DNA from: Stachybotrys elegans | Lineage: Eukaryota; Ascomycota; Sordariomycetes; Hypocreales; Stachybotryaceae | DNA: 64,000 nucleotides | Assembly (NCBI GenBank): GCA_020746835.1 | Contig: JAGPNK010000017.1 | Coordinates: 682,001 to 746,000 of the forward strand | Reading direction: 5' to 3' | Part shown: positions 24,949 to 61,066 of the stretch, one piece after another | How positions within the stretch are numbered: the stretch's first letter is position 1 | Layout: each line of letters opens with the position of its first letter | Position numbers and translations under genes: made by a program | The notes under the pieces: generated by a model | Databases searched by the model: none | Told to the model about the DNA's origin: nothing | Seen by the model: only the letters and a program-made list of their open reading frames with translations

Positions 24949-26089
24949 ATGAACGCTCAATCCACATCCGCGCTTCCCATTATTGACCTTGACGTGTTTC
25001 GGTCAGCATCGCCCCAAGAAGTCAAAAGCGCCGCCGATGAGCTTCTCGCAGCTCTCAAGACCATCGGGTTCGTCTACATCAAAAACCACGGGATCCCGCA
25101 GCCCCTCGTCGACGAGGCATTCTCATGGGTACACGAACAGTCACTCTATTCCTTCCCCTTCATAATGGCTAATTTCCCGCTGAACAGAGCGCCAGGTTCT
25201 TCAGCCTCCCCCTCTCGGAGAAGATGAAGGCGCCGCATCCGCCGGAAGGATGGCATCACAGAGGCTACTCGTCGCCCGGGCGCGAAAAAGTCACACACCA
25301 AGTATTTGACCAGGATTCCCTCGCCAGCCTACGCCAGAAAGCTCCCGACGCAAAGGAATCCTTTGACATTGGCCGCGAAGACGACGCTCGCATGAGGAAT
25401 GTCTGGCCTCCCGAGGATGTGATGCCGGGGTTCCGCGGCTTCTTCGCGAAGTTCTACCGCAGGTGTTTTGAGCTGGAGGACGACATCTTGAGCGCCATCG
25501 CAACCTGTTTGGACCTCGATAGCGGATATTTCCACCGCTTCCATGCGGGACGGGAGAACCAACTACGACTGCTGTGCTATCCAGAGGTGGACGCCGGGAG
25601 GCTGCAAAGAGGGGAGGTGGAGAGAATCGGAGCTCACACTGATTACGGGAGTACGTCGCACCGTCGATGCCTTCATGTGTGTACCTTGTGGGCTGACTTG
25701 TAGTAGCCATGACATTTCTGTTCCAGGATGATGTCGGTGGCCTAGAGGTTGAAGATCCCAACAACAAGGGCATCTTCAAGCCCGTCCCGAGTATCCCGGG
25801 AACAGTGGTCCTCAACATCGGCGACTTTCTACAGCGATGGAGCAACGATATCCTCAAATCGACCATGCATAGGGTAGGTGTGCCACCGGAATTGGCTGGG
25901 GCTCGGCGGGATACGGCGGGAGCAGCTGGGGTACTTCGCCCAAGATACTCGATTCCGTACTTTGTCGGCACGGATGGTCATGTCACGGTGGACTGCATCC
26001 CAGGCTGCTACGGGCCCGATCGGCCCAAGAGGTATGAGCCTGTGAATGCGCGGGAATACATAGATTTGCGCGCCAACGCGGCATACTAA
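24949..26089 (+). CDS. 2-oxoglutarate/Fe(II) oxygenase, isopenicillin N synthase-like
   Basis: Exons 24949-25128, 25188-25650 and 25707-26089 give 341 residues. The N-terminal DIOX_N domain starts LPIIDLDVFR and includes GFVYIKNHGIP and ARFFSLPLSEK across the first splice. The C-terminal double-stranded beta helix carries the iron ligands His210 and Asp212 (AHTDYG), His269 (STMHRV) and the 2-oxoglutarate arginine in RYSIPYF (Arg294). All required residues are present, so the enzyme should be active; its substrate is unknown, as for most fungal members, which act in secondary metabolism or nutrient use. The second intron ends GTAGTAG, giving two possible acceptors three bases apart. An ethylene-forming-enzyme-like oxygenase follows on the same strand at 29034. 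Confidence 0.88.
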
Positions 26090-28878: not shown

Positions 28879-29033
28879 TTAATCATATAGACGGAATTTC
28901 TAATACCATGTCTCTCAAAAAGTGTAAGAGAAGAGCGAGTTCATCCCGGAGCTGAACTGCGTCTGCCCATACCAAACAAGTACCAACCACAAGACGATCT
29001 CATCACCTTTACTTTGCATACTCAAGCTACATC

Positions 29034-30368
29034 ATGTCTATCACGACTTCACTTGTCCGCTCTCTTCCACGCCGTCTCAATTTCGGCTACATGAGAGCCT
29101 TCCATGCTGGAGCTTTCGTGCAAGCCGACCTGGCCAAGACTATGCCTCCAGGGTATAAAGCCAAAGTCGGACTCTTGGAAACCTTTGCCATGCCAGATCA
29201 TGTCACTGGCTCTGAGGGAGACCGCACCATGGGAAAGGCCATGATTGACTGCTGGCGACGAGATGGAATTCTCCAGATCGCCACTAGTCCTGAGGGACAG
29301 CGGCTCCAGAAGGAAGCCTATGGGGCAAGCAAAGCCTTCTTTGGCAAGCCTCACAACGAAAAAGCAGCCTGCATCGACTCCCAGAGCTACGCTGGCTATA
29401 TTGCTTCTGGCGAAGAGATTACTGACGGCATCGCCGACTACTCTGAAATCTTCACCGTCACTAAGGACTTGCCCTTCACTGATGCTCGCGTGCAGGCGAA
29501 GTGGCCGTGCCACGGACCTTGCCCCTGGCCCGATGGTGAAATGAAGGAGGCCATTGGGAATTACATCCAGTGGCTCGGAGGTGAGGGGGAGAAGCTCATT
29601 CGCTTGATTGAGCTGGGCCTTGAGATCCCGGAGGGGTCTCTGTCCAACTACACTCGTGATGGGTGGCATCACTGTCGGGTGCTCAGGTTCGTGCATCGAC
29701 CCTGGCCACCAGAATGACGCTTACGTCTCTAGATTCCCTGCTACCCATCTGACCAACAAGAAAGGAAAGGAAGGTCGCGGCATTGGTTCCCACACCGACT
29801 ATGGCTTGCTTGTTATCGCCTCCCAGGATGATGTTGGTGGTACGTATATCTTGTTAACGTTGCTCTCTTTGCGTTGTGCTTACTGGACGACAGGTCTGTT
29901 TATACGCCCGCCGTATGAGGATGAGAAGTTTGCCAACTGGGAGAAGAGCTCGGCTGGTCTCCACGAGAACGATGATCGCTGGGTCTATGTGCCACCCATC
30001 CCCAATGTCCACACAGTCTTTCCTGGTACGTGTTTCCTGCATGCTTCCTATAGCATGAGCTAACCAATGACACAGGCGACATGATGCAGTTTCTGACTCA
30101 AAACTATCTTCCCTCGACTCCTCACAAAGTCGGCTTAAATAAGCGCGAGCGGTTCGCTGTTGCCTACTTCCACGAGCCGAGCTTTCAGTCGGTCATCAAG
30201 CCCCTCGAGCAGTATGCCAAAGACAAGGATGCAAGTGAGGGTGTCCACTATGGTACTCACTTTACCAACATGTTCATGCGCAACTATCCTGAGAGGATTA
30301 CGACCCAGCGTCTCAAGAGGGAGAACCGCTATGAGAAGCTCAAGGAGGAGGAGCTTCACCGGGCCTGA
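29034..30368 (+). CDS. EFE: Ethylene-forming-enzyme-like 2-oxoglutarate oxygenase
   Basis: Four exons (29034-29686, 29733-29839, 29894-30025, 30076-30368) give 394 residues. From residue 47 on, the protein can be aligned almost end to end with Pseudomonas EFE as I remember it: SGEEIT, EIFTVTKDL, WPCHGPCPWP, TRDGWHHCRVLRF, SHTDYGLLVIASQDDVGG, STPHKV, RERFAVAYFHEP and HFTNMFMRNYPERITTQR. Iron ligands are His238, Asp240 and His314, and the 2-oxoglutarate arginine is Arg323. Counterparts of the bacterial arginine-binding residues (Glu84, Thr86, Arg171, Tyr192, Arg316) are Glu128, Thr130, Arg215, Tyr241 and Arg366. EFE makes ethylene from 2-oxoglutarate and also oxidises arginine. Residues 1-46 are an extra, Arg-rich N-terminus that could target mitochondria. 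Bacterial Cys317 is Asn367 here. Confidence 0.9.
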
Positions 30369-35241: not shown

Positions 35242-35631
35242 TCAGAAATCCGTCGCCCTTCCATTGTAGCTCCAGTCGCCGGAGCTGCCCCAGCGCAGAG
35301 GCTCGTTCTTGGGCCCGCCAATCTCGCCCGTCTTGGGGTTCTTGTCGCCTTCGAACTCCGGGGGAGCGCCGCGGAACATGTTGGGGTGCATGAGATCTGC
35401 CTCGGCGGGAGCGGCAGAAGCAGTAGCATCAGAGGAAGCGGCGGCAGGCTTGTCGGCGGCAGAGGGCTGGAAGGCGGGTGCAACGGCGGCGGCGCGCTGG
35501 AGACGCTCGAATTCGGCCTGGTCCTCGGCGGACAGCTTCGGGGGCGCGGGCTGCGGCTTGAAGGAGGAGTAGGAGCGCAGAGTGCGCGGCTGGCGCAGCA
35601 AGGGGAGGAGGGAGCGCGGGACGCGTGCCAT
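35242..35631 (-). CDS. SDH8: Succinate dehydrogenase assembly factor 4 (Sdh8)
   Basis: A single-exon gene of 129 residues. The N-terminus (MARVPRSLLPLLRQPRTLRS) is a typical arginine-rich matrix presequence. The C-terminal 25 residues hold the DUF1674 signature: TGEIGGPKNEPLRWG, DWSYNGRATDF, matching the family pattern of GGP..EP.R(Y/F)GDW...GR..DF. SDHAF4/Sdh8 binds the flavinated Sdh1 subunit in the mitochondrial matrix and protects it until it joins complex II. The longer in-frame start at 35769 is rejected because its hydrophobic leader would hide the presequence. Its start lies only 207 bp from the polyketide synthase stop codon, marking the left border of the cluster. Confidence 0.93.
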   Translation of the reverse strand: MARVPRSLLPLLRQPRTLRSYSSFKPQPAPPKLSAEDQAEFERLQRAAAVAPAFQPSAADKPAAASSDATASAAPAEADLMHPNMFRGAPPEFEGDKNPKTGEIGGPKNEPLRWGSSGDWSYNGRATDF

Positions 35632-35838
35632 TTTTCTCTCTGTTGGTGATTGAACCAAAGATCTAAAGGCGAGTATGTAGTTGTGGCAAAACCAGAGGAC
35701 TACTAGTATAGGGTAGTGTAGAATACGAAGTTTTGGGAGGCGGAAACAAGCCTCGCTATAAGAATACATTTTCCATAACTCTAAGCCTACTTGTAGCTAA
35801 GTGGATCCCGCCCAAAATAAAGTCATTTACAGATCTGT

Positions 35839-38800
35839 CTAAGAATGATGCAATGCGATCAAGCCATCAACAGCCTTCTTGGCCAATGCCCCAAGAGTCC
35901 CTGTAGCAAGCATCTCAAGCACGCTGATATCGAAGCCAAATGCCGCCTTCCACCATGCCTTGACCTCGATGGCGACAAGCGAATCCATGCCCAGCTCGAC
36001 CAGGGACCCCGATATGTTGACGTCGTCGTTTGGCTTCAGTAGCAGAGCCAGGAGCTTGGCGCCGATTCCATGGGCGACTGTGGCAATCGCGGAAGCATCG
36101 TTGAGCAATGCCGCGTTGTCCTTGGCGGAACGCAGGAATGCAGCAAACTCATCCTCGTCCTTGCCTGCGCTTGGACTCGAGCCCGAGCAGTGGTATACGG
36201 CCATGCGGACGTCCTTGCGGCTGCGCGAACTGCTGGCTGGGTCACTGAGCGGCACGGTGGGTGCGACACCAAGCAGGAAAGTGTTGCCTTGAACAATAGC
36301 GTCGTCCCTCGCGTCCAGAGTCCTGCTCGCCGACATGGCTAGCGGGAGAGAATCGAAGAGTTCCCTCTCGCTGACTGATCTCCATCCGGTCCCCTTCATC
36401 TTGTTCAGGAGCTCCTCGTTGTCGAACAGGTATCCGGCGCCTTCCATAGCGCCTATGTCTATGGCGCTGCAAGGCAGTCCCTGGCCTTGGCGGAACTGGA
36501 CAAAGGCATCTAGGAAAGTATTGGCGGCTGCGTAGTTGGCCTGTCCAGGCTGGCCGATGATACCAGACAGCGAGCTGAAGAGCAGGAAGAAGTCGAGCTT
36601 TGCGCTGCGAGACACCGTAGCCTCGTGGAGGACCCAAGTGCCGTCGACCTTGGGGGCTGCACACGTTGCCCAATCATCAAACGTCATGCGATCAAAAGCC
36701 TGGTCTCTCAGAACCATGGTCATGTTGATGACTCCCTTGACGCCGCCTGAGGCCAGCTTCTCGGCAGCATCAAATGCGCTGGAAACCTCGTCGGGGGACG
36801 CCACGCTCCCCTTGACAAGGGCTACTGAGCACCCCATGCTTTCCAACTCGGAGACAAAGTCAGCATCGTGTTCCCCTTGGCCAGCCTTGCGGGAAAGAAA
36901 GACGAAATGCCGGGCTCCATGCTGGGCCATCCAAACCGCCACCGAGCGACCTAGCCCACCCAAGCCGCCAACCACGAGGTAGGCACCATCATGGGCGAGC
37001 TGGAACGGCACTTCGGCATTTTTGGTGTTCGAGCCCAGCAGTAGCTCCCCATTTTCAGGGTCGCGAAGTTGGACGACAAATTTGCCGATATGTGTGCCCT
37101 GCTGCATCGCGCTGAATGCTTCAGGAGCCCGAGATGCCTCAAAGGTGTCGCATATGGGAATCGGTTTGATCTGACCCTGTGAGTGCAGATCCATCATGGT
37201 TCGGAGCAGCTTGGCCGTCGACTTGGGCCTCTCTCGGTCCATCTGATCAATATCGATGCAGGCATACGTCCGGTTGGCGAGGAAAGCACTCATATCCAGC
37301 TTAGCCATGCCCAGGAGATCTCGCTTTCCAACCTCGACCATGGTGCCCCATTCTGCTATGCACCCCCAGGTCGCATGGAGGAGCTCTCCCGACAGCGAGT
37401 TGAGCGCAACGTCGACTCCCCTGCCCATTGTCTCGCGCATGACTCCTTCCACGAAGGAGGTGCTGCGCGAGTCGAAGATATGGGCAGCGGGTATGTTGAA
37501 GTTGCTTTGCAGGTATTCCGACTTTGTCTGGCTGCTGACAGTTACGAATATCTCGGCGCCGACGGATTGCGCAATTTGAATAGCAGCTATGCCTAGCGCA
37601 CCGCATCCGCTATGGATGAGGACAGACTGGCCAGCTTCAAGACGGGCTTTGTTAAGAAGACCGTGGATTGCGGTTGAGTATACCATGGGCATAGTTGCTG
37701 CATTGGCAAAGGGCAACGAGTCCGGGATCTTGACGAACAGATGCTGGTTGGCAACGATGGAGGTGGCCCAACTTGCCCAATGTTGAAGAAGAACACGGTC
37801 GCCGGGCTGAAGACCTTCAACGTTGGACCCGATGCGTCGGACGATTCCTGCACCCTCGTAGCCAAACACGGTGTCGTCGAGCTTGATGATTCCGTTGGCA
37901 ATAAGGATGTCCTGTAGGTTGTCAGATGAGAGCGCGACTAATTGTGAAGCAGCAACATGTACTCACTCGGAAATTGAGACCAACAGCGTGAACTTCCATC
38001 TCCACCTCATCTTCCTCCAGCTCCTCAGCAATGGTAGTTTCTGTCCACTGGAGCGTGTTCAAGCGGCCCGGCTTGCCAAGTCGCATCCTAAACTCCTTCC
38101 CTCCTGCGGTCCTTGCCGCCTCCTCCTTGAGAGAGAAGGGGAAGAAGCGGTTGACTCTAGTAGCACCACGGTTGATGGCATACTCGTAGTCTGGATCGAG
38201 GACCCCGTCTTTTCTTCTTGAGTGGAATCTGGAAAAGACGTCGGCGACAACAGCAGCTGGGAGATTCTCGACGTCGTCCACTTCGCAGGTTGCAAACTCG
38301 ATATCCTTTTCGGAGCGCAAGGTGCGCGAGAGACCAATGACGGGGGCATATGCAGGGTCGGTGCTGCCCGTCTGGCACGTCCGGGTGATCCAGAATATTC
38401 CAGCCCCTTGCGAGAGGTTATTGACGAAAGCCTTGACATCCTCAAACTTCTCTGCGTCAAATGTCTTGCCGAAGAATGGCCCTCCCACGTCCAGCAGAGC
38501 GATGACATCCTGCCCGGGACGGGGGGTGTCCTTGATTGTGCACGTTGAAACTTGGTAGCCGCGCTGCTCGAGCTGCTTTACGAGAAGATCCTCCGCCGAG
38601 GCATTGCTGTCTTGCCCGCGTAGTATAGCTATGGTTCGGCTGCGAGTTGCTGCTTGCTGAGGCCGAGCTACTATGATGGCGTTCATATGGCAACCATTGT
38701 CAGCATCCAGCACAACGTTGTCAGGACTGCTGCCAAACCCTGCCTGTGAAAGCTCGTCGTGCCATCTCTCTGGCGTGACATAGGGCTCCTGGAGCCGATC

Positions 38801-41800
38801 GTCTGTCGCGCCCGCCCACCAGGGAGCAAGCAAGCCGAGAACGAGCTTTGTCCAGGCCAAGTCTGGGACTGGCTCCTGCAGAACCAGCCGTCCATTGGGA
38901 GACAGCAGCTTGTGTATCCGGGACAGACTGCTGGAAAGGCTTGGTGTGCCGTGCAGTACGCCAGCCGCAATCACCACGTCGAATTCGCCCTCTTGGTCGT
39001 CGAACCCCTGCGTATCGAGGCCCTTGCCAATGTCGAGCTGAACAAACTCGATGCCTTGAAAGTCCTTTAGGCGCTCTTTGGCTTTCTCGAGGGCGGTCCC
39101 AGACGGCTGAGCGACGACGTACCGCGAGTACATGACTTGCCCGTCGGCCCGCGTGAGCAGCTTGAGCTTGCTAGCAGCCGAAGAACTGCTCGCGTCGAGC
39201 TCGAGGATCTTTAGCGAGGGCTTGCCGAGGGCCATGCAGCGCAGGAGGGCGTCGGCATCGAAGGCTCTCGTGAATGCTGACAGGCGGCTGAGAGCACTGT
39301 CTACATCCAGGACATCTCGGGCACGACTTGTGCCGGCGATGATGGCGGGGAAGTTTGCCACAACATTGGCGATCAACTCGGAGGCGACAGAGGCCGGCGT
39401 CTGTTTCAAGTCTTGGATAAGACGCTGAAGCTCGACTGTAATGCCATCATCCTTGAGAGACTCGTACCTTGCCGACTCGTAGGACTGTAGCCATGAGAGG
39501 TATTTCGAGAGGCTCTCCGGACAGTCGGTTCCGGTAGTCGCCTGGGCAGCCACGCGCTTCAAGAGGGTAGTGGCCAGGTGTGCCAGCTCATTGAGCTGCT
39601 GGAAATACGCTTCATGTGGATGAGCACCTTTGACCAGGCCCTTGACATCCTCAAAGTCGACGTGTCGCACCCACTCGGACCTGGCAGTGATTGGCATCAC
39701 GGATCGTTCCCGGTCGTCAGTGTTCTCGTCGAGTCGCGACATGCGCATGCCCTCGACGCGGATAACCGCCCTAGACCCTGACGAACACAGTCCATGGCCT
39801 AGGATGCCCTCGTTGGTGGAGTTGACAAGCGCCCTTATGTCAATGTCACCCTCGCCCGGCGGGCACTTCATCATGGTTAAGGAGCTGAAACTTGTCGGGA
39901 GGCATTGGCGGTAGTTTTCGCCCCGGCCACGATGAGCAGCGCATCCCAGGAGCTGCAGATAGGAGTCGAGAATGACGGGATGTACGTGATAGTCAGCTTC
40001 GTCGCCGTGCCAGCTGCTATTGCTGACATGGGCTGTGGCGGTCAATTCATCCACCGTGCTGGCCCTGATATCCTGGAGCGTCGTAAAATGGTAGCCGTAG
40101 TTGAGCCCGCCATTTCGGACAATCTCGTACCACTTGCGGGCGTTGACCCGTCTCTGCGGCAGCCCAGGGCTCCGAGGGGGCTCCGGGATGGAGGCGGTCT
40201 CTGCTCTGACTTCTCCCGAGCAATGCTTGGTCCATGCGTGGCCGTTGTGCGACGAGATGCTGAACTCGAACCATTGGCTGTTCAACGAGTCGGTCAAGCG
40301 CTGGGGACGCAGAGTGGTGATGAGCTCGGTTGGCTTGTTGTCCTCTATCAAAAGGGCTGCGCTGACAAGGACACGACGCAAACTAACGCCATAGGAGATG
40401 CCAGTCATCTGCCGGGCAGCTTCTGCGGCCATTCCGACGTAGCCGGCGAACGGGAAGACGATGTCGTCGTTGACCTTGTGGTCTCCCACCCAGGGAACGC
40501 TGTCCAGGTGGAAGATGTTGCGCCAGATCGGTTCAAGGTCAGAGCTTTCGGGGACTCGGGCACCAAGAAGCGGGTGCTGCTTATGCTCGCGCAAACGCCA
40601 GGCTTTTGTCACCCGGCTTTCGAACCAGTAGCTGCGTGAATGCTTCCAGGGATATGTTGGAAGATCTGGCAAGCATGATCCTGTTGGGACGAGAGCCTTG
40701 GGGTCAAAGGGGATATGCAAGCTGTACAGTTTGCCCAGAGCATTGAGATATGTCTCCATGCTGTCGGTGCGGCGCGTGAGGGCCGAGACGTGTACGGCCG
40801 AGAGTCCCTTCTCCGCAAGAGTCTGCCTTACTGGTCCTGCCAAGGCACCGTGCGGCCCAAGTTCCAGAAACACTGGGTTTGGCACGCCGCCTTCCTGGAT
40901 GATGGCCGTGACGGCAGATTTGAAGAGCACTGCCTGCTCGAGATTCCTCTGCCAGTAACGGGGACCGAGCTGAGCACCAAGCTTTGTGGTGACATTGGAT
41001 GAGAGAAGCCCGCCTGAAACGCTCGAGTAGAAAGGCTTGGTTGGAGCCTGTGCTGTGACGCCCGACTTGACCATGGCATCGAGATACTGCTGTCCTATCT
41101 CGACCATGTGGTGGGAGTGGTAGGCCTTGTCGACCTTGAGCATAGTGGCGAGAACCCCCGAGTCCCTGAGTTTTATGTATGCGACGACTGCCTCGAGCTT
41201 ATCGCTGTCGCCCGAGAGAGTCACGCTCTTGGGCGAGTTGTCACACGCAATGACCACGCCTGGGACGAGGAAGCGCTCGGCGTCTTCCCAGCCCATTCCC
41301 ACAGCAGCCATGGCGCCCTTGCCAGTAGCCAGCTTTGCCATGGCGCCACGGTGGTACGCTATGGCGATGGCCGATTTTGCTGTGATGGCGCCAGCGGCAT
41401 AGGCAGCTGCTATCTCACCGCTCGAGTGGCCTACTACGGCGGCTGGAGTGACGCCCACCGAAGCCAACGAGTCGACCAGTGCGATCTGGATGGCCGTGCA
41501 TAGAGGCTGGGAGAGTTCGGCCTCGTTGATGCGGCTGGTGCGAGCTGGTTTGAGAAGCTCTTCCTCCAGCTTGAAGACGCCGGCAGGTGCCAGCGTAGAG
41601 AGATGGGCATCGAGGGACCGGATGGTGTCCCTGAAGGTCGTGTTCGCCTTGATAAGCTCACGGCCCATCTGTGGCCACTGAGCTCCCTGACCTGTAAACA
41701 CCATGACGAGATTCGGTGTCTGCCCGCCTTTCGGAGGTGGAGTTGGCGCGGCTGCCATGCCCGAAGACTCGGGCGTGGCGACGGCAAAGGAGCGATGAGG

Positions 41801-43482
41801 AAGATGCTCGCGGTGGTTGGCCAGCGTGTAGGCGAGGTCCGAGAGCTTGTTGGGGTTTGCCTCTGCAAACGCCGTGTACTGCTGAGCCATCTTCTTGAGC
41901 GACTCGGGGCTGTTGGCCGAGTATAGAAGCAGTCGGGGCGTGTTGCGGGCCACGCGCTCCGTCTTTTGGTCTTTGAGGCCGGCAGCCTCTCGACGAAGCG
42001 CCTCGACGCCGTAGCTTGCGGCTGACTCGACAATGACGTGTGCGTTGGATCCGCCGATGCCAAACGAGTTGATGCTGACGCGCTCGTGGCGGTCTTTTGG
42101 CCACGGCGTAGGCTCCTGGGGAACAACCAGGCCCTTGTCCCACCTGATCTTGGGGTTCGGAGGCTGGGACTTGATGTTGGGAGGTATCATGCGGTTCTCC
42201 AAGCATAGCACGGCCTTCAAGAGAGAGGTCATGCCCGAGGCGCCCTCAGAGTGGCCAAGATTTCCCTTGACAGACCCGATGAGAACGCCCTTTTCGCCAA
42301 AGACTCTAGCAACCGCCTCGGTTTCCAGGGGGTCACCCGTAGGGGTTCCCGTGCCGTGACACTCGACAAAGCCTGTCTGACAGTAGTCCTTCTCGCTTAT
42401 CCCGGCAACCTGATAGGCTCGACGGATCAGGGCCTCTTGTGCGTCTGCGTTGGGCACGGTGATGCCGTTGGTCTTGCCATCATGGTTCGTCGCGGCACCA
42501 GTAATGACGGCGCGGATGGGGTTGTTGTCTCGGATGGCATCGGCAAGCGGCTTCAACATGAAGGAGACGATGGCTTCCGCGCGTGCATATCCATTGACGT
42601 TTGCAGAGAAGGGCTTGCATGAACCGTCTGGTGACATGACGCCCATGTTTGACATGACCATGGTCAGATCAGGACCCAGAAGGAGGTTGGTTCCGGCTAC
42701 GAGAGCCGACTCGCAGTCGCCCCTCGCAAGGGCTAGACATGCCTCGTTGAGACCTACGAGGGACGCCGAACAAGCCGTTCGGATCGTCATGCTGCAAGTA
42801 CACATCAGCAGGCTGGCCTAGCATTGAAGGCGGGGGGGGGGCGTTCTTACCTGGGCCCCTGAAGGTCCATTTCATAAGACAGGCGATTCGACAAGGCAAA
42901 GTCGGTGACAACGGTGACCTGGTAGCCACCATATCTTTGCCTGTCCGTGTTGAAGAGCTCGTGCCAATCTTGGCCATAGCTGCCAACGTACACACCGATA
43001 TTCTTACCGCGAAAGTCTGTGACGCCAGCGTCATCGAAGGCTTCGCGAGAGACCTCGAGCAAGAGACGGTGTTGAGGATCGACGCGCTCTAGCTCGGCCT
43101 TTGGCATGGAGAAGAAGGACGTGTCCAAGGCCCCGAGGTCCACGGACTCGTCCAGGAAGTAGCCGTGCTTGGACACGATGGTGCCCGGCTTTTTGGGTGT
43201 TGGATCATGGTAGGCCTCGATGTTGTATCTTGTCTCGGGGACGACGCCTCGCGCATCTCCTCCGGCAAGGAGAAAGGGGAACAGACCTTGGGTGTTGTTG
43301 ATGCCACCAGGTAAACGGCAAGACATGCCGCAGATGGCGATGGGAGTGAAGGCGGCACTCGGGGGTGAAGCACCTGTACCGTCATCACTTCCACTTGCCG
43401 GAGTGAGAGGGTTTTCGCACGAGTAGTCGGGCGACAGGTCGCTGTCGGAACGACTGTCGTCGATGATGACTCCTGGGGCCAT
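35839..43482 (-). CDS. Highly reducing type I polyketide synthase
   Basis: Exons 42851-43482, 37967-42791 and 35839-37911 (introns 59 and 55 bp) give 2509 residues. Domains in order: KS (about 50-475; Cys218 in RTACSASL, HGTGT near 355, His near 389 in GHSEGASG); AT (about 570-880; GHSSGEIAAAYAAG near 665); DH (about 945-1250; His982 in GDHKVNDDIVFP, later HPVILDSYLQLL with the Asp); C-methyltransferase region (about 1330-1600); ER (from about 1790; LIHSGCGALGIAA near 1917); KR (VVGGLGGLG near 2129, QANYAAANTF near 2277); ACP with GMDSL serine near 2462. No thioesterase or reductase follows the ACP, so release must come in trans, most likely from the oxoamine synthase at 44552. The methyltransferase SAM motif is degenerate (ELDASSSSA where EIGAGTGG-like is expected), so the chain is probably unmethylated. 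The start at 43482 (MAPGVIIDD) is preferred over 43524. Confidence 0.95.
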
Positions 43483-44551
43483 TCTGAATGATGAGAAGAG
43501 GTAGAGTCCACGGAGCACATTCACGTGTAGAAAGGATGGACAAGGCGAGGTGGCTGAGGAAGCTGATTACGATGGGACAGACTCTACAGACGAGCTGATT
43601 TATATCTACATTGGGAAGCTTCATCTCCAGACTTAGACGCCGTGTTCCTCAGGGCGCTCGTACAAGCGGCGGCGTGGACTTTGGAAAGAAACCCGCCCAT
43701 GTTGAGAGCCCAGAACAGAGCCATCGTCGATCGTCGCCTGACCATACTCGGTCAGGTAGGTTGGGCAACCGTGGCCATTGCGGATGTCGAGAAGCCGAGC
43801 GCAACAACCAAATTTCGGCCCCCATGGATGGGAATGAGCCGAGGGTGAGCATTCTGCATGGGCAAGGCATGCCTTGACGCCGCCGTTGACGAGCCCGGGC
43901 GTTTCCACTTACACATTGACCGGGTCGGCCGTCGAGGTCAGAAGGATCGGTATGTACAACACAAGTGGGTTTCGGGCCTGGCAGACATTACCTAGAACAG
44001 AAATGTCTCCAAGGATGGATGATTCCAGATCTGGGTCCTCGCTGAAGGCGCATTCAGAAGCCAACCTCTTATTGGCAGGTCGGACGCCGGCCGGGCCAGA
44101 CACGGCCGTTGCACCATCTCGGTGTTGCATGATCACATAGGGCTCTGCTCTATTCAACTCTGGATCCGAACGTTTCATCACCTTGACTCTCAGTCAGCAG
44201 ATGAGCGTATATGCACGACGATGGTTCTTTTGAACGCTGCATTCCTTCGCAGCTGCATGACCCCCAAACTCCTACCGTCTTCTCAACTCTGACTGCTTTG
44301 CCGCCGCAGGGACGCACCATGCGTGCATGATGCGCGCATGGCGCGGACATGAACCCGAATCTGTTTACTTTGTCCGCGATACGAGTGTCAGTGTAGAAGG
44401 AGTGCGAGCAGCGCCATTCTATTTCTCCCACGGGAACGCCTTGCCAGGTGACACAATCAAGCATACGAGTTCTGTTGCACCGTCCCATCATCATACGCTG
44501 AAGCAACCAACCAACCAACCTCATCTTGACTCTTCATCTTCTTTCTCCAAC
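43483..44551. promoter_or_regulatory. Shared divergent promoter of the PKS and oxoamine synthase genes
   Basis: The two cluster genes start 1.07 kb apart and read away from each other, so both promoters lie here. A TATAAAT box faces the PKS (43598-43604). CCGGGTCGG at 43920-43928 is an everted CCG-N3-CGG of the type bound by Zn2Cys6 regulators; whether it is used is inference. No regulator gene is present in the cluster. No open frame here looks real. Confidence 0.6.
43598..43604 (-). promoter_or_regulatory. TATA box of the polyketide synthase gene
   Basis: TATAAAT on the minus strand, in GATATAAATC, about 120 bases upstream of the chosen PKS start codon, a plausible distance for a fungal core promoter. 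Confidence 0.5.
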
Positions 44552-46006
44552 ATGGCTGCCTACGGGACGCAAATGTTCTCTGGCTACCTTGCCGCCATGA
44601 ACCCCAGAGCTGGGGCCATGAAGGGCGCCCCGGCCTTTTATAGGAACCTCGAGGCCATGCTCGATGTCCGCCGTGCCAGGCATGACCTGTTGACGGCCAA
44701 GCCGCGATGGGATGAGACGGTGGGCGACTACACCAGCAGCGACTTCCTGTCGCTGAACCGCTCGGGCAGGGTCCGCGAGCTGTTTCTTGCTGAGCTTGCC
44801 GCTCATCCGCAGTTTGTTCTTTCGGCGTCGGGGTCTCGCGTCCAGTTCGGCAACTATGAGTACCTGTGCGAGACTGAGGAGGAGATTGCTCGCATCTTCA
44901 AGGCTGAGACTGCCATCATTACTCATTCTGGCTTCATGGCCAATGTCGCCGTCCTCCCTGCCATTGCCATGCCTGGCGATGCCTTTGTCTACGACGAGGC
45001 GGTCCACGCCAGCTCGCACGACGGCATGGCTCTCAGCAAGGCCGAGCACAAGATATCCTTTGCCCACAACGACGTTGACGCGCTGCGCGAAGTTCTCGAG
45101 AAGCTCAGCAAGGAGAATCAAGGATTTGTCACGGGTGCCAATTCCATCATCATTCTCGTCGAGAGTGTCTACAGCATGGACGGCGATATATGCCCCCTTC
45201 AGGAGATGGTGGCTCTCACCAAGGAGATGTTTCCCATGGGAAACGCTCAGTTCGTCATAGACGAGGCCCAAGGCATTGGCATCATCGGGCCCAACGGCTG
45301 TGGGCTAGTTGCGCTCCTAGGCCTGGAGAAAGATATCGCCATCCGCATACACATGGCCAGCAAGGCTGCTGGGAGCACCGGTGGCATCGTCCTCTGTAAC
45401 CAGACCATTCGGTCTGTCATGATCAGCCACGCGCGCTACATGATCTACGCGGGTGCGCCGTCCTTCCCCATGGTTGCTGGGATCAGAGTTGGCATCCGAG
45501 AACTGACCTCTGGAGCCTGCCAGGAGGTAAGTCACACCCTGTCGATTTTCTTTTTCGGGCAATGATATTCATCCAAACAGGCCCAGGATTATGTTCAGCG
45601 TGCCGTCAGGCATTTCTTCAACCAGGTGACTTCGCACCCTTCGTGGGACGCAGTCAACGATGAGGGCATACTGCGCATCCCCGTGGCCGAAGACCACGAG
45701 TCGCGGCCCTTTGTGAGCCACATTGTGCCGCTGCGCACGAGAGTGGGCGACGAGAAGCATCTGTCGCGACACCTGCTGCTGATTGCCAACGCCAACGCCT
45801 ACGCAATCTCGTTCCCCATTGTGCCCAAGAACAAGACAAGGGTGAGACTCGTGTTCCACGCGCACAACAGCCTGGCCGAGGTGGAAAAGCTGGCGGGTCA
45901 CGTTATGGATTGGGCGGAGGAGATGCTTCGGATCGACGAGGAGGGGGACGATGAGGTGCTGCCAAAGGCAACAAGGATGTACCAGGCCCTTGAGGTGGCG
46001 GCCTAA
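44552..46006 (+). CDS. PLP-dependent alpha-oxoamine synthase
   Basis: Exons 44552-45526 and 45581-46006 give 466 residues. The fold-type I aminotransferase pattern is clear: YTSSDFLSLNRS, SGSRVQFGNYEYLCETEEEIA, FVYDEAVHASSHDG, ILVESVYSMDGDICPL, FVIDEAQGIGIIGPNG (Asp237 is the pyridine-N ligand), and the PLP lysine 271 in HMASKAAGSTGG. This is the oxoamine synthase family (5-aminolevulinate synthase, serine palmitoyltransferase, BioF, KBL) that condenses an amino acid with an acyl thioester and loses CO2. Standing divergently beside a highly reducing PKS without a release domain, it most likely offloads the polyketide as an amino ketone, as Fum8 is thought to do for fumonisins. Length is that of a single domain, shorter than Fum8. 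The usual DEAH histidine is Gln240 here. No targeting signal is obvious. Confidence 0.9.
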
Positions 46007-46877
46007 TAATAGTCAACTCGTTGTTACTCAAGTATAACTCTGTGTAACAGACGGGTGTAAAATCGGTGACTCTCTGATTATTCAGACAATATAAAATCAA
46101 TAGATGAAAATTAGCAGAAAAGACTGAAAACGAGCCATGAAAGGCGCATCCCAGAATGTTGATTTTGATTTTGATTTTGATTTTGCCGTCTCATGATTGT
46201 GTGATGAATATTGCATCTGATTTCGCTTCGTTCTGTTTTGATAACGTACGTTGTATCTACCATAACTTGACGCAGGAGGAAAGGATTATGGCCTTGTCAA
46301 TCGATCCACCTATGTAAGTCTAGAACACGGTGCAGAGAGATTAATTGGGCATGTTGACGAGACGAAGACCGGGGGTTCTTGCATGGGAACTTTTGTTGAG
46401 CCAGACCTTGGGCAAAATGTCTGCATCGGCCCCATGATGTCGACTTATCGTATCAATTTACATGCAAGTTGGGGGCGGAGGCCTCTCCGAGCCGAGGGTG
46501 GCCAGCCTCTTGCATCAGAATGCGATCAAAGTCCTCCTGGCGAATGCCTGTATTGGTAATCCCGCTGCAAAAAGGCCATCGTGAGGTTACATCCCAGGGG
46601 TAAGGGAGCCATGGTACAGCTCGCCAGGGAGGAACCCTCCCCCCACGGGCAAGGATGTGTTGGCTGCGGCTGCAGGTGAATCCTTTATGCCCCAAGATGC
46701 GCCAAAAAACCAAGCTTTCTCCAAGCTTTCTCTTGTCCCCCCGTTCTCCCCGAGCTGCGTCCCGTCCCGTCTTTGCCCAAGACGCCGCCCCGAGGTTTGG
46801 TGTGGCAATAAGACCTTGACAGTCCCCTCTCCTGCCGACTGCAACTGCAACTGCACCGCTCCAAGCCTCTGCCAGCC
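46007..46877. other. Intergenic spacer inside the cluster
   Basis: Between the oxoamine synthase and the MFS gene. Contains a short GATTTT tandem array; otherwise nothing recognisable. Probably the MFS promoter occupies the right half. Confidence 0.5.
46161..46184 (+). repeat. GATTTT hexamer tandem repeat, four copies
   Basis: Four perfect tandem copies of GATTTT, a simple microsatellite in the 3' flank of the oxoamine synthase gene. Confidence 0.9.
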
Positions 46878-48644
46878 ATGGAGAAGGACATCTCGACGCG
46901 CGCCGACGGCTCCCCGGCTTCTGCCGTACGGGTTGACGACGACAAGCAGGCTGTTATGGCAGACGACACACAGGCTTCTGTGATGGAACAGCCAGCTTCC
47001 GAGGAGAAGAGGGAAAAGCCCTTTTCGTTCTACGCGTCAGTGGTTTGTCTTGCGCTGCTCGTGTTTATTGTGTCCTGGGACGCCACGTCGCTGTCAGTCG
47101 CTATTCCTGTAAGTCATCTGAACCCAGCGCCGCCGGCCACGGCCGCTTGCTTCGCCCTTGTTCTAAACACCATTCTTCGCTAGGCCGTTGCAAGCCAGTT
47201 TCAGGCAACGACGATCGAGTCGTTCTGGACGAGCATCGCCTTCATGTTGGGCGTTGCCGTCTCCCAGCCAATCTACGTCTCCCTCTCCGATGTGCTTGGC
47301 CGAAAACTGCCGCTGTACGCTTCCATGGTCTTGTTCGCCGTCGGCTGCATCCTGTTTGCCACGGCCGAGTCCATTTCCACCGTGGTTGCCGGCCGTGCCC
47401 TGCAGGGACTCGGCGGAGGCGGTCTCGATGTCCTCGAGTCCATCATCCTGACAGACATGACCACGCTCAGCGAACGGCCGCTGTGGATGGGCTTGATGGC
47501 CATCCCCGTTGCCTTGGGCACGATTCTCGGGCCCATCATCGGCTCGCTCTTCGCCGAGCATGTATCGTGGCGCTGGATTGGTTGGGTCAATCTGCCCTTT
47601 GTTGGCGTCGCTTTCCTCCTCGCCGTCTTCTTCTTGCATCTCCGGCCTCTCGGCATGGACTTTCGCGGCAAGCTGCTCCGGATTGACTGGGGAGGGATGG
47701 CGCTCTTTACCGTGGGAGCAACGAGCTTCGTGCTGCCGCTCAGTTGGGCCGACGCATTGTTCCCCTGGTCCTCTTGGCGGACAATTGTGCCTCTGATCAT
47801 CGGCATCCTCGTGCTCGCCGTCTTTGCCTGGTACGAGACGAAGCCCGTCGCGCCCATGTTCCCGTACCGTGTCTTTTCGACCACAACAGCCTCCATGGCC
47901 ATCTTTGGAGCCTTTATCAACGGGCTTCAGCTCTATACCCTGCTCTTTTACATCCCTCTCTTCTTCCAGGCTGTCTTCCTCGACACGCCGCTCGAGTCGG
48001 CTGTCCACTTATTGCCATTCTGCGGCCTTTTTGTCGCATTTTCCCTCATCGTGCCCATGTCGGTGCCGGTATTTGGACAGTACCGGTGGCAGATCTGGTC
48101 CGGCTGGGTGCTGCAGACTCTGGCGCTGGGCCTTCTTTGCCTGATGGGGCGCACGCCCAATTCCGGCGCCGTAGCCTATGTGCTGCAAGCTCTGCTTGGT
48201 GCAGGTATCGGCGCGCTTTTCATGACCAACTACGTTCCCCTCCAGGCGGCCGTCGTCACTCGATCTGTTGATGACACTGGCGTCGCATCGGGAATGCTAG
48301 TCGTCTTCCGTCTCTTTGGCGGGCTGATAGGCCTGGCTATAGGCTCTGGTGTATTCAACAGCGTCTTCGCCTCGAGAATAAGTTCTCTTGGCCTTCTTTC
48401 CGGTCCATTCTCACCCCTACGTGACCCAACCCAGGCTGTGGGCTTCATCCCTGAGCTACTGGGGATTGACATGGACAATCCAGTCCTCACCGAGGTCGTA
48501 GAGGCGTATAGGTCGGCATTTGAGGCGCTATGGATTACCTTGACTGGCATTTCGGGCCTTGGATGCGTGTCTTCTATTTTCATCAAGCATTACGCGGTTG
48601 ATAATAAGGAAATGGGGCGACAGAGGCTTGAGGAATCCTCTTGA
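46878..48644 (+). CDS. MFS multidrug/metabolite exporter, 14-helix DHA2-like
   Basis: Exons 46878-47108 and 47184-48644 (75-bp intron) give 563 residues. After a charged cytosolic N-terminus of about 50 residues come roughly 14 hydrophobic helices. Motif A reads VSLSDVLGRKLPL; the antiporter motif C reads ALGTILGPIIGSLF; and GRALQGLGGGG between them is the conserved motif B region. These are hallmarks of drug/H+ antiporters at the plasma membrane, a type often found in toxin clusters (aflatoxin AflT, fumonisin FUM19 is an ABC type by contrast). Placement next to the PKS and oxoamine synthase suggests export of, or self-protection from, the product; this is inference. The first exon ends phase 0 after VAIP and joins cleanly to AVASQFQ. 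Confidence 0.9.
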
Positions 48645-49757: not shown

Positions 49758-51337
49758 ATGTTTCTGCGTCGCGTCGCTCGGCTCCCAGTCGCCGTCTCAC
49801 AGAAAATTTCCAAGAGATCTCGTATAGCATCTGGATTCGCCATGGCCTACTCCCACAAGTCCTCTTCTTCCTCCTCCCCTCAGCTGGTCCTTCAACCACG
49901 CCAGTACGCAGCCCGGGGATTTGAGGTGATCCCACTTCACCAAATGCTGGAAGAGGAAGGGCTGCCGTTCTACAACATCGAAGACTACTATCCGGTTCAG
50001 ATAGGCCAGGTCATCAAGGATCGCTATCAAGTCGTGGCGAAGCTTGGCTATGGCGGTAGCTCTACTGTCTGGCTGGCCCGCGATCTAACGTAACTATTTC
50101 ATCCCACCATCTACCGATATCACTAACCTAATGGCGACCTAGAGAGGAGCGGAAATACTGGGTACTCAAGGTATACGTCAATACTTTGAAACACAACCAA
50201 GAGCTGCGTGTCTACGAACATCTTTCTAGCGTGGAATCCGATTATCCTGGAAGAGGGTATGTTCGTCGATTCGAAGAGTGGTTCAAGCTCGACGGTCCGC
50301 ATGGCAAACACGATGTGGTCGTCATGGCGCCCCTGGGCATGAGCCTAAGAACTCTGCAAGGCATGCAACCAACCCACGCGTTCCAACCAATGTTGGTCAA
50401 ATCTGCTATTAGCCAGGTCTTGCTTGGGATCGTTTATCTCCATGAAGCTGGCGTGATTCACACCGGTAAGTACCATTCCTCCATTTCCTTTAAGCTCGGC
50501 AGATTGTGCCGATAGGGTAACACATCTAACACGCACAACAAGATCTGCACTCTGACAATTTGCTTGTCGCGTTAACCAGCGATAATATTCTCTCCAAAGT
50601 GGAAGAAGAGGAAATCTTGCACCCGTCGGCACGCAAGCGGATCAATGATACCATCATATACGTCTCGAGGTATATGCTCGGAGGTGCAGGCGTGCTAACC
50701 ATCTGCGATCTCGGCCAGGCAATGATCGGTGCAGAGCATCGTGGAATCGCCATGCCAACCCAGTACCGTGCGCCTGAGGTTATCCTGGGTATGCCATGGG
50801 GAAATGCAGTCGACCTATGGAGCGTAGGGCTACTGGTATGTTTAACCCATTCCCCTTGCAATTCCCATTACTGATGGAATCTGTTTCATCTAGGCATGGG
50901 ATCTCCTCGAGCCAAAGCCACTCTTTCGTGTGTTTGATGACGAGAATCCGGAGCTCAACGAGGCACACCATCTTGCAGCCATGACGGCCCTTTTGGGCCC
51001 CCCTCCATTGGATTTTCTCAAAGCAGGTGAAAAGGCAGGGAAGTATTGGACTGTCGATGGTGAGCAGCAATTTGCTTCCATACAAGTATAAGAGCATGCT
51101 GACTTGACAATTCATGTAATAGGCGAATGGAAGGGACCCGTTCCGCTGCCGCCGAAAACCAGCTTCGAGTCACTGGTCACAACGTTGACCGGGGAAGAGA
51201 AGGAGCTTTTCATCGATCTCATTCAGCGTCTTCTCTCCTGGGACCCTCAAGAAAGACTATCGGCTCTAGTGGTTTACTTTCACGTGTGGCTACGAGGCAG
51301 GGAGGCGGCTGAAAACATCGACAGCAATACGCAGTAA
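49758..51337 (+). CDS. SRPK-like serine/threonine protein kinase
   Basis: Five exons (49758-50089, 50143-50465, 50543-50835, 50894-51059, 51123-51337) give 442 residues. Kinase landmarks: KLGYGGSSTVWLARDL glycine loop, Lys120 in YWVLKVYV, HTDLHSDN catalytic loop with Asp219, a long insert, then CDLGQA with Asp274 (DLG in place of DFG), then TQYRAPEVILG and DLWSVGLLAWDLLEPK. The closing helix contains WDPQERLSA. HTD and the APE-distal pattern place it in the SRPK-like family of filamentous fungi, like the partial kinase at the window's left end. All catalytic residues are present. The N-terminus (MFLRRVARLPVAVSQKISKR) is Arg-rich and could be a mitochondrial presequence, although a start at 49842 (MAYSHKSSS) is equally possible. 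The final exon ends soon after kinase subdomain XI. Confidence 0.85.
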
Positions 51338-59906: not shown

Positions 59907-61002
59907 GCCTCCTCCTAACTGCGTCATTCTGGCCTTTCTTTTGGTGCTGTGAGCAGAAATAATATATTCAAGGCTTGGACTACCTACGTAGTTAATAAAA
60001 AATATATTCATCTGTTTTCTGTACTTTGTCTCAGTGCTTTCCCGCTTATATTGGCCTGCTGCAGACAGCACTTTCTAACCCTTCTGATTAAATCTAACCA
60101 TAAAAGGTTTCCGACCGAGGCACCTCTCTTATTCTCCATGACGCGTAATTTATATCATTCTCATGATACTGATTAGGTTCCAGTTTAAGAGAGCCTCAGA
60201 ACGTCCTATAAGCCAGAAGGGCCGTAGATAAGTCAAGAAGAAAATCATAAGGGAGGTCATCTGCCTTACTAGATTGATTTATATAGATCCCCCTAATTAT
60301 ATATATATCTATAAGGAGGTTTCTCCCCTTATATAACTCTACTAAGTTATTATAGATAATATAAATAGCTAGATTTATTAGTAAATTATATCTCCCTTTA
60401 ATATTTATTCTTAACTTTTCTTTTATTATATTAAGTACTGTATTCTTAAAGCTTATATACTAAAGAAAGTTATCTAGAATATATACCTTAGCTAGCTCTA
60501 AGTACTCTATGTCTTCTAAACCTTCTTACTCTCTATCTTAGATAGGTAGTATATAATAGTAAAGCTAGTTCAAGTAGATCTAGAATCTACTAGTATTATA
60601 ATCCTTAAGCTATATATTATATAACACTGCCTTAGTTTACTCTCTACTTAAAGCCTTTTTAAAAAAGGGAGAGACTTTATAAATTAGCTCTTTATAGATA
60701 CTAAAAAGGGTAGGGTTGGGATTTAGACTAATAATCACCTTAATACACTGACTGCTTAAACTAAAAGGCATAAGTTAGATAGCCAAAATGTTATGTAAAG
60801 TTACTTACTTAAGAATGCTGTCTTTTGAGACTCTAACTGTTACTATCTTAAGGCTGGCCATGTTATCTTAATGTTTAGAAGAAAGAACAGAAGCCTCTCT
60901 TTCAACAGAATCCGAATTATCCGGGAACTCTTAAGGTTATGTCATATACTTTCTAGCCGTTTGAGGCAAAGGAGAATCCTTGGAGTTAGGTTCAAAGGAA
61001 TG

Positions 61003-61066
61003 TGGCTTGAGTGGTCAAGGGCCGGACTCGCGTGGCTTGGGATGACTCAGTGATGGATTCGATCCT
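61003..61066 (+). other. tRNA-like segment with A- and B-box resemblance
   Basis: The sequence TGGCTTGAGTGGTCAAGG at 61003-61020 resembles a Pol III A box of the serine/leucine tRNA type, and GATTCGATCC at 61056-61065 resembles a B box. The acceptor and T stems do not pair well, so it is not a working tRNA gene. It may be a tRNA-derived SINE remnant or a RIP-damaged tRNA copy. Confidence 0.25.

What the first reader, a model, noticed from the sequence alone, without database searches (positions are those of the whole stretch)
35839..48644. Minimal PKS plus oxoamine synthase plus exporter cluster for a sphinganine-like metabolite
A complete highly reducing PKS without a release domain, a single-domain alpha-oxoamine synthase and an MFS pump sit together, with the first two sharing one divergent promoter. 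This is the core logic of fumonisin-type and sphingofungin-type pathways, in which the oxoamine synthase releases the polyketide by decarboxylative condensation with an amino acid. Here no P450, dehydrogenase, aminotransferase or regulator gene is visible between the primary-metabolism genes SDH8 and the right-hand kinase. The expected product class is therefore a plain 2-amino-3-ketone lipid or its reduced form, which could act on host sphingolipid synthesis. Product identity is inference.
Basis: partly seen in the sequence, partly recalled or inferred. Interest (0 to 1): 0.75.

Follow-up and report, generated by a model that had tools for sequence, protein, structure and literature searches.

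The report
Fungal polyketide–oxoamine synthase–exporter gene cluster
A mould carries three neighbouring genes that probably build and export an amino-ketone lipid related to sphingosine mimics such as sphingofungin; the arrangement is of a known kind, recurs in other fungi, and here has one odd change in an enzyme's active site.

Summary
The window is Stachybotrys elegans: its PKS exon and MFS are 100% identical to deposited S. elegans proteins from a 754,140-base contig, the length of the window's contig. It holds a complete highly reducing PKS without release domain, divergent from a 466-aa alpha-oxoamine synthase (AOS), then an MFS transporter. No SDR, P450 or regulator turned up among the ORFs scanned between SDH8 and a weak kinase match.

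The AOS lies in one clade with the sphingofungin enzyme SphA (51% identical over the core), apart from the genome's ALA synthase, two serine-palmitoyltransferase-like proteins and BioF. FUM8 is the wrong model.

The trio recurs: AOS and PKS hits share 23 contigs, 6 carry all three, and AOS and PKS distances correlate (Mantel r 0.82).

SDR-less PKS+aminotransferase clusters are published (Kim et al. 2020), so this is a new member of a known kind. Unexpected: the DEAH histidine is Gln (His in 116 of 118 relatives, Tyr in 2), the methyltransferase lacks GxG, the ER motif is altered, and a second PKS-AOS pair lies elsewhere in the genome. Product, expression and sphingolipid effects are inference.

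The parts
35839..43482 (-). Highly reducing iterative PKS, 3 exons (43482-42851, 42791-37967, 37911-35839), 2,509 aa, KS-AT-DH-cMT-ER-KR-ACP, no thioesterase or reductase release domain found
   Evidence: spliced model; Pfam; deposited S. elegans PKS P0127 identical over residues 1-2499
43483..44551 (.). Divergent intergenic region (1,069 bases) between the PKS and AOS start codons
44552..46006 (+). Stand-alone SphA-like alpha-oxoamine synthase, 2 exons (44552-45526, 45581-46006), 466 aa; PLP lysine K271, D237, H152 present; Q240 (codon 45269-45271) in place of the usual His
46878..48644 (+). MFS efflux transporter (MFS_1/TRI12), 2 exons (46878-47108, 47184-48644)
   Evidence: the deposited protein P0247 starts 35 codons further in
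43836..43847 (+). GAGCCGAGGGTG, 12-mer shared with the AOS-MFS spacer (46489-46500); weak candidate regulatory element, lead only
46489..46500 (+). second copy of GAGCCGAGGGTG, upstream of the MFS gene

Best explanation
This is a small secondary-metabolite cluster of the SphA/SAM (sphinganine-analogue metabolite) type. The PKS builds a long, largely reduced, probably unmethylated acyl chain and has no domain to release it. The stand-alone AOS binds an amino acid as a PLP aldimine (alanine, or aminomalonate/serine as for SphA), attacks the acyl thioester, loses CO2 and releases a 2-amino-3-ketone lipid. The MFS protein exports the product or a derivative. No dedicated 3-ketoreductase was found, so the ketone either stays or is reduced by an enzyme encoded elsewhere. 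Shown here: gene content, intact reading frames, the place of the AOS in one clade with SphA, and recurrence and co-divergence of the genes in other fungi. Inferred: the reaction, amino acid, chain, export and biological role.
For: Complete PKS domain set without a release domain. AOS matches 9dos (423 bits) and SphA (PDB 9pep, 412 bits) far better than the next chain (108 bits, 8s1y) or any serine palmitoyltransferase (at most 101.3 bits). In a FastTree of 114 sequences a clade of 89 (local support 1.0) holds the window AOS, SphA and 9dos and excludes the genome's HEM1, Lcb1-like, Lcb2-like and biotin-cluster BioF; within it the window's sub-clade of 69 is split from SphA's 20 with support 0.72. 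23 contigs carry both a listed AOS and a listed PKS homologue, 6 carry all three genes. In the 5 species whose serial locus tags can be read for both AOS and PKS the numbers are consecutive. Distances co-vary: AOS-PKS Mantel r 0.817, n=24, 0 of 9,999 permutations; AOS-MFS r 0.884, n=13, 0 of 9,999. Published precedent: SphB plus SphA make the first sphingofungin intermediate, and SphB has no recognisable thioesterase (PMC10936153, passages).
Against: AOS residue 240 is Gln where 116 of 118 ungapped relatives have His and 2 have Tyr, so catalytic competence is not assured. The PKS deviates at 17 of 437 near-invariant columns, rank 64 of 71; the AOS is less unusual by the same measure (2 of 56, rank 81 of 107). 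No SDR was found in the cluster. The MFS's two closest relatives (P0248, P0249; 64-65%) lie on contigs absent from the AOS and PKS lists. Part of the co-divergence may be species history, which I did not separate. No expression or chemistry was available. No S. elegans AOS was among the 120 hits listed.
Confidence: 0.78

Rival explanations
1. The trio makes an amino-ketone that is not a sphinganine analogue: a shorter or partly unsaturated polyketide joined to an amino acid, which then cyclises or self-condenses (pyrrole, pyrazine or pyrroline type). The PKS-AOS logic is the same but the target differs.
For: The ER nucleotide motif is A-L where 67 of 70 relatives have G-V, so reduction could be incomplete; the cMT lacks GxG, present in 60 of 70. 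No 3-ketoreductase was found in the cluster. A free alpha-aminoketone is chemically reactive (recalled). The curvulamine precedent is recalled; the search for it returned one paper, on another subject.
Against: The closest characterised relative, SphA, serves a sphinganine analogue, and Kim et al. treat SDR-less clusters as SAM clusters because other SDRs may compensate.
Confidence: 0.25
2. A decaying or silent cluster: frames are intact but the AOS has lost catalysis through the DEAH-to-DEAQ change and the PKS is drifting.
For: Q240; 17 deviations at near-invariant PKS columns; altered cMT and ER motifs.
Against: No in-frame stop in 2,509 plus 466 plus 563 codons although the nearest full-length relatives are only about 55% (PKS), 58-59% (AOS) and 65% (MFS) identical; splice sites are GT-AG; KS, AT, DH, KR and ACP motifs and PLP lysine, aspartate and stacking histidine are kept. 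Tyr occurs at the same AOS position in two relatives, so the site tolerates change.
Confidence: 0.15
3. The AOS is a housekeeping enzyme (biotin BioF, ALA synthase or serine palmitoyltransferase) that happens to sit next to an unrelated PKS.
For: Deposited relatives are often named 8-amino-7-oxononanoate or 5-aminolevulinate synthase, and bioF is the best NCBIfam model.
Against: All 13 NCBIfam matches are below cut-off (204 against 426 for bioF). The genome has its own ALA synthase (C1:2345k, 578 bits over a cut-off of 339), Lcb2-like and Lcb1-like proteins (my assignment from the residues seen; no NCBIfam model reached cut-off) and a BioF beside BATS/radical-SAM and Aminotran_3 genes. The window AOS falls apart from all four and co-diverges with the PKS.
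Confidence: 0.02

Closest known systems
Sphingofungin cluster (SphA AOS, SphB PKS, SphD MFS; Aspergillus fumigatus, Paecilomyces)
   Same: Stand-alone AOS of the same clade (50.7% identical over up to 227 columns), a PKS with no recognisable thioesterase, an MFS transporter (PMC10936153 passages)
   Different: No SphF-type ketoreductase, SphH P450, SphC monooxygenase, SphE acyl transferase or regulator found here; AOS has DEAQ; SphB sequence was not compared
SAM1-SAM5 clusters of Fusarium and SDR-less SAM clusters of other fungi (Kim et al. 2020, PMC7376913; abstract and sections 5, 8, 9, 11, 20 seen)
   Same: HR-PKS and single-protein class II aminotransferase side by side; only 26 of their 43 non-Fusarium clusters had an SDR; MFS is among the gene types in their cluster figure legend
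   Different: Clade not assigned here (no SAM1-5 sequences in hand); Stachybotrys does not occur in the main text; supplementary files were not read
Fumonisin cluster (FUM1, FUM8, FUM13)
   Same: PKS chain taken over by an oxoamine synthase (PMC11796371 passages)
   Different: FUM8 is an Lcb1-Lcb2-like fusion, this AOS is single-domain; no FUM13-type SDR or P450 found between SDH8 and the kinase match
Second PKS-AOS pair in the same genome (C1:5813.7-5824.1 kb)
   Same: Divergent AOS and HR-PKS
   Different: 28-33% PKS identity over the longest matching stretches, 45% AOS identity over the shared core, His kept, Val at the residue-83 position, P450 and berberine-type oxidase nearby; one of its AOS matching stretches holds an in-frame TAG, not resolved

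Membership tests
SphA-like stand-alone alpha-oxoamine synthases | Groups with SphA rather than ALAS, Lcb1, Lcb2 or BioF in a tree | tested here: met
   clade of 89 with SphA and 9dos, local support 1.0, without own HEM1, Lcb1-like, Lcb2-like and BioF (tree rooted by me on the first three); window and SphA sub-clades split with support 0.72
SphA-like stand-alone alpha-oxoamine synthases | PLP Schiff-base lysine, pyridine-N aspartate and stacking histidine (roles recalled) | tested here: met
   K271 (111 of 111 ungapped relatives), D237 (118 of 118), H152 (120 of 120)
SphA-like stand-alone alpha-oxoamine synthases | DEAH histidine contacting PLP O3' (role recalled); a near-invariant signature, not the basis of membership | tested here: not met
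   Q240; His in 116 of 118 ungapped relatives, Tyr in 2
SAM clusters (Kim et al. 2020) | HR-PKS next to a single-protein class II aminotransferase | tested here: met
SAM clusters (Kim et al. 2020) | SDR (3-ketoreductase) gene in the cluster | tested here: not met
   no adh_short hit outside the PKS's own KR domain among 48 translated stretches of the window, chosen from 194 ORFs of 110 aa or more; the authors still accept SDR-less clusters, so I call it SAM-like
SAM clusters (Kim et al. 2020) | PKS in Reducing Clade III / SAM PKS clades | not testable with these tools
   none of the 120 listed PKS hits is named as FUM1 or a SAM1-5 PKS
SAM clusters (Kim et al. 2020) | Sphinganine-analogue product | not testable with these tools
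   needs chemistry
Sphingofungin cluster | SphF ketoreductase, SphH P450, SphC and SphE present | tested here: not met
   no such domains among the ORFs scanned between SDH8 and the kinase match
Fumonisin cluster | FUM8-type Lcb1-Lcb2 fusion | tested here: not met
   466 aa, one Aminotran_1_2 stretch; FUM8 description from PMC7376913

The most novel reading that the evidence does not exclude
The PKS-AOS-MFS module, found in several classes of Ascomycota (classes recalled from genus names), may make free 2-amino-3-ketones rather than sphinganine analogues, if its relatives too lack a ketoreductase (their neighbours were not examined). The Stachybotrys member would be a functionally shifted version, with a Gln-for-His PLP contact and a PKS without methylation and with altered enoyl reduction, giving a new aminoketone chemotype used against other fungi by this mycoparasite.
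Probability: 0.13. Interest if true: 0.6.

Novelty: new member of a known kind. Interest (0 to 1): 0.35.

Why it matters
If the reading is right, this is among the smaller gene sets that could make a sphingosine-like amino lipid, and its recurrence in distant fungi gives a testable rule: a PKS without a release domain beside a SphA-like AOS predicts an amino-ketone. The active-site Gln and the missing ketoreductase raise the question of how much of the SphA mechanism is essential. It also moves the comparison from fumonisin to sphingofungin-type chemistry, and flags an AOS gene that may be missing from the deposited annotation.

Tried and rejected
FUM8-type release: rejected, see membership test. 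AOS as housekeeping BioF/HEM1/Lcb: rejected by the tree and by separate copies in the genome. The KS residue three before the catalytic cysteine (Arg, where I recalled Asp in other PKSs) looked odd but is Arg in all 69 ungapped relatives of the 70 aligned, so it is a family trait. Residue-83 rule for the amino acid (PMC7376913): the window has Ser, which the paper reads as alanine, but SphA also has Ser at this column and is reported to use aminomalonate, and serine with palmitoyl-CoA, so the rule does not decide; that this Ser is the residue-83 equivalent rests on recall of the ALAS motif and on the T and P seen in the genome's own copies. Shared promoter word GAGCCGAGGGTG: two exact copies and one with a mismatch in the window against 0.37 expected, but the word was picked after the fact; 20 copies in the genome against 17 for the reversed control; four shared 10-mers (three of them overlapping in this word) against a mononucleotide-shuffle mean of 1.77, largest 8. 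Only a lead. The bacterial promoter scan of the divergent region found nothing and does not apply to fungi. PKS column 1457, which I first took for a methyltransferase motif residue, is not one by its printed context and is not used. Literature: among the listed titles and abstract starts I saw none on this S. elegans cluster (5 of 5 papers listed, 12 of 21); two narrower searches gave 0 papers; other searches were made, the last listing 10 of 1,616. The S. elegans mycoparasitism metabolome paper (PMC4413796) has no match for 'sphing' in its main text (passages only). FUM8, FUM1 and SphB sequences were not compared. No structure prediction was run.
Full report
What is in the window. The contig is from Stachybotrys elegans: the long PKS exon and the MFS protein are 100% identical to deposited S. 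elegans proteins (P0127, P0247) whose contig length, 754,140, equals that of the window's contig C9. The three genes claimed are there with clean models: a PKS of 2,509 aa on the minus strand, an AOS of 466 aa and an MFS transporter on the plus strand. The PKS and AOS are divergent with 1,069 bases between start codons. Pfam finds KS, AT, DH, methyltransferase, ER, KR and carrier domains and no thioesterase. Active-site motifs of KS, AT, DH, KR and ACP are kept. Left neighbours are DUF1674 (SDH8) and Rxt3. To the right come a weak kinase match at 50530-50874, a PHO4 phosphate permease and a GH10 glycosidase. Of the ORFs scanned between SDH8 and that kinase match, none is an SDR, P450 or transcription factor; I scanned selected ORFs, not all.

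The oxoamine synthase. Of 54 PDB sequences matched, 9dos (named 8-amino-7-oxononanoate synthase, 423 bits) and SphA (9pep, 412 bits) stand far above the next (108 bits) and above serine palmitoyltransferases (at most 101.3 bits). In a FastTree of 114 sequences over 227 columns, a clade of 89 (local support 1.0) holds the window AOS, SphA, 9dos and a second S. elegans AOS. The genome's ALA synthase, its two serine-palmitoyltransferase-like proteins and the BioF that sits beside biotin genes are not in it. I rooted the tree on the first three, but this split does not depend on the root. Inside the clade the window's 69 and SphA's 20 part with support 0.72, so the window AOS is a relative of SphA rather than its close orthologue. 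The gene is thus a secondary-metabolism AOS. It is not of the FUM8 kind: Kim et al. describe FUM8 as an Lcb1-Lcb2-like fusion and SAM1-SAM5 aminotransferases as single proteins (PMC7376913, section read).

Is the trio a unit? The three protein searches list the best 120 hits each, with the longest contig of each hit. AOS and PKS lists share 23 contig lengths, AOS and MFS 13 (one with differing species names, dropped), and all three share 6: Xylaria intraflava, Biscogniauxia sp. FL1348, Nemania sp. NC0429, Nemania abortiva, Xylariales sp. PMI_506 and Clonostachys chloroleuca. For the 23 the species names agree wherever given (two are unnamed metagenome contigs). Nine of the 23 are longer than 1 Mb, so a shared contig alone is not adjacency; three are shorter than 20 kb. 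In the five species whose tags can be read for both genes the numbers are consecutive (Thermocarpiscus 2365/2364, Fusarium NRRL 66182 2355/2356, Ascochyta lentis 007725/007724, Lasiodiplodia mahajangana 2978/2979, Flavoplaca 001029/001030). Pairwise distances of AOS and PKS correlate at r 0.817 (24 taxa, 0 of 9,999 permutations as high), and of AOS and MFS at r 0.884 (13 taxa, 0 of 9,999). Species history may explain part of this and was not separated. Against the MFS as a dedicated partner: its two nearest relatives (Cylindrodendrum 65%, Thelonectria 64%) lie on contigs not in the other lists, and 97 of 120 listed AOS hits have no listed PKS on the same contig, though the lists are capped.

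What is odd. First, AOS residue 240: DEAQ, where 116 of 118 ungapped relatives have His and 2 have Tyr. In related enzymes that His touches the PLP hydroxyl (recalled). Lysine 271, Asp 237 and His 152 are kept. Second, the PKS differs at 17 of 437 near-invariant columns, rank 64 of 71. Its methyltransferase lacks GxG, present in 60 of 70, and the ER nucleotide motif reads A-L instead of G-V, which 67 of 70 keep. I take this to predict an unmethylated chain and possibly incomplete enoyl reduction. Third, the genome has another divergent AOS/HR-PKS pair on C1 around 5.81-5.82 Mb, with a P450 and a berberine-type oxidase nearby.

Mechanism. By precedent SphB and SphA make the first sphingofungin intermediate, SphB has no recognisable thioesterase, and SphA uses aminomalonate, or serine with palmitoyl-CoA (PMC10936153, passages). 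The window's PKS and AOS fit this: chain building, then release by decarboxylative condensation to a 2-amino-3-ketone, then export. The amino acid is undecided, because Ser at the specificity position is shared with SphA although Kim et al. read Ser as alanine. With no SDR found in the cluster, the ketone stays or another SDR reduces it. Kim et al. make this argument for SDR-less clusters and cite 10% residual 3-hydroxyl product in fum13 mutants.

Novelty. PKS-plus-aminotransferase clusters lacking an SDR are in print: only 26 of 43 non-Fusarium clusters had one. Stachybotrys does not occur in that paper's main text (supplements not read). I therefore call this a new member of a known kind, SAM-like rather than a SAM cluster in the strict three-gene sense. 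The most novel reading still open is a distinct aminoketone chemotype linked to the altered AOS and PKS sites.

Limits. One assembly, no expression data, no chemistry, no neighbour genes for the relatives, and no named FUM1, FUM8, SphB or SAM sequences to place in the trees. The deposited PKS protein (2,614 aa) carries the DUF1674 domain at its end, which I read as a wrongly merged gene model, and no S. elegans AOS appeared among the 120 hits listed.

Noticed in passing
window 35242-43482: The deposited S. elegans PKS (P0127, 2,614 aa) carries the DUF1674/SDH8 domain at its C-terminus: the public gene model appears to merge PKS and SDH8.
   Followed up: yes
window 44552-46006: No S. elegans protein for this AOS was among the 120 listed database hits (candidates of about 256-815 aa), so it may be missing from or differently modelled in the deposited annotation.
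   Followed up: partly
window 25173-25703 and 28956-29717, plus strand: Two ORFs with the N-terminal domain of non-haem dioxygenases lie left of Rxt3 and SDH8; SAM1 clusters include a dioxygenase, but other genes intervene here.
   Followed up: partly
L017 2231-9999 and L018 1112-9205 (G000:C1 about 5.807-5.824 Mb): A second divergent HR-PKS/AOS pair in the same genome, with P450, berberine-type FAD oxidase and a fungal rhodopsin-domain gene nearby.
   Followed up: partly
window 60001-64000: GC drops to 25-33% near the contig end (window ends at 746,000 of 754,140), as in AT-rich, possibly RIP-affected subtelomeric DNA (interpretation recalled).
   Followed up: no
window 42779-42781 (PKS residue 215): The residue three before the KS catalytic cysteine is Arg in the window and in all 69 ungapped relatives, a signature of this PKS group.
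   Followed up: yes
L019-L020 (G000:C60 about 1.678-1.683 Mb): A fungal biotin gene group: BioF-like AOS, BATS/radical-SAM biotin synthase and an AAA_26/Aminotran_3 gene side by side; its BioF is 37% identical to the window AOS over the core.
   Followed up: partly
P0030 (Stachybotrys chlorohalonatus AOS homologue): The same-genus AOS homologue falls in another branch of the tree, while the window AOS pairs with Biscogniauxia P0013 (support 0.81), which hints at a patchy history of the cluster.
   Followed up: no
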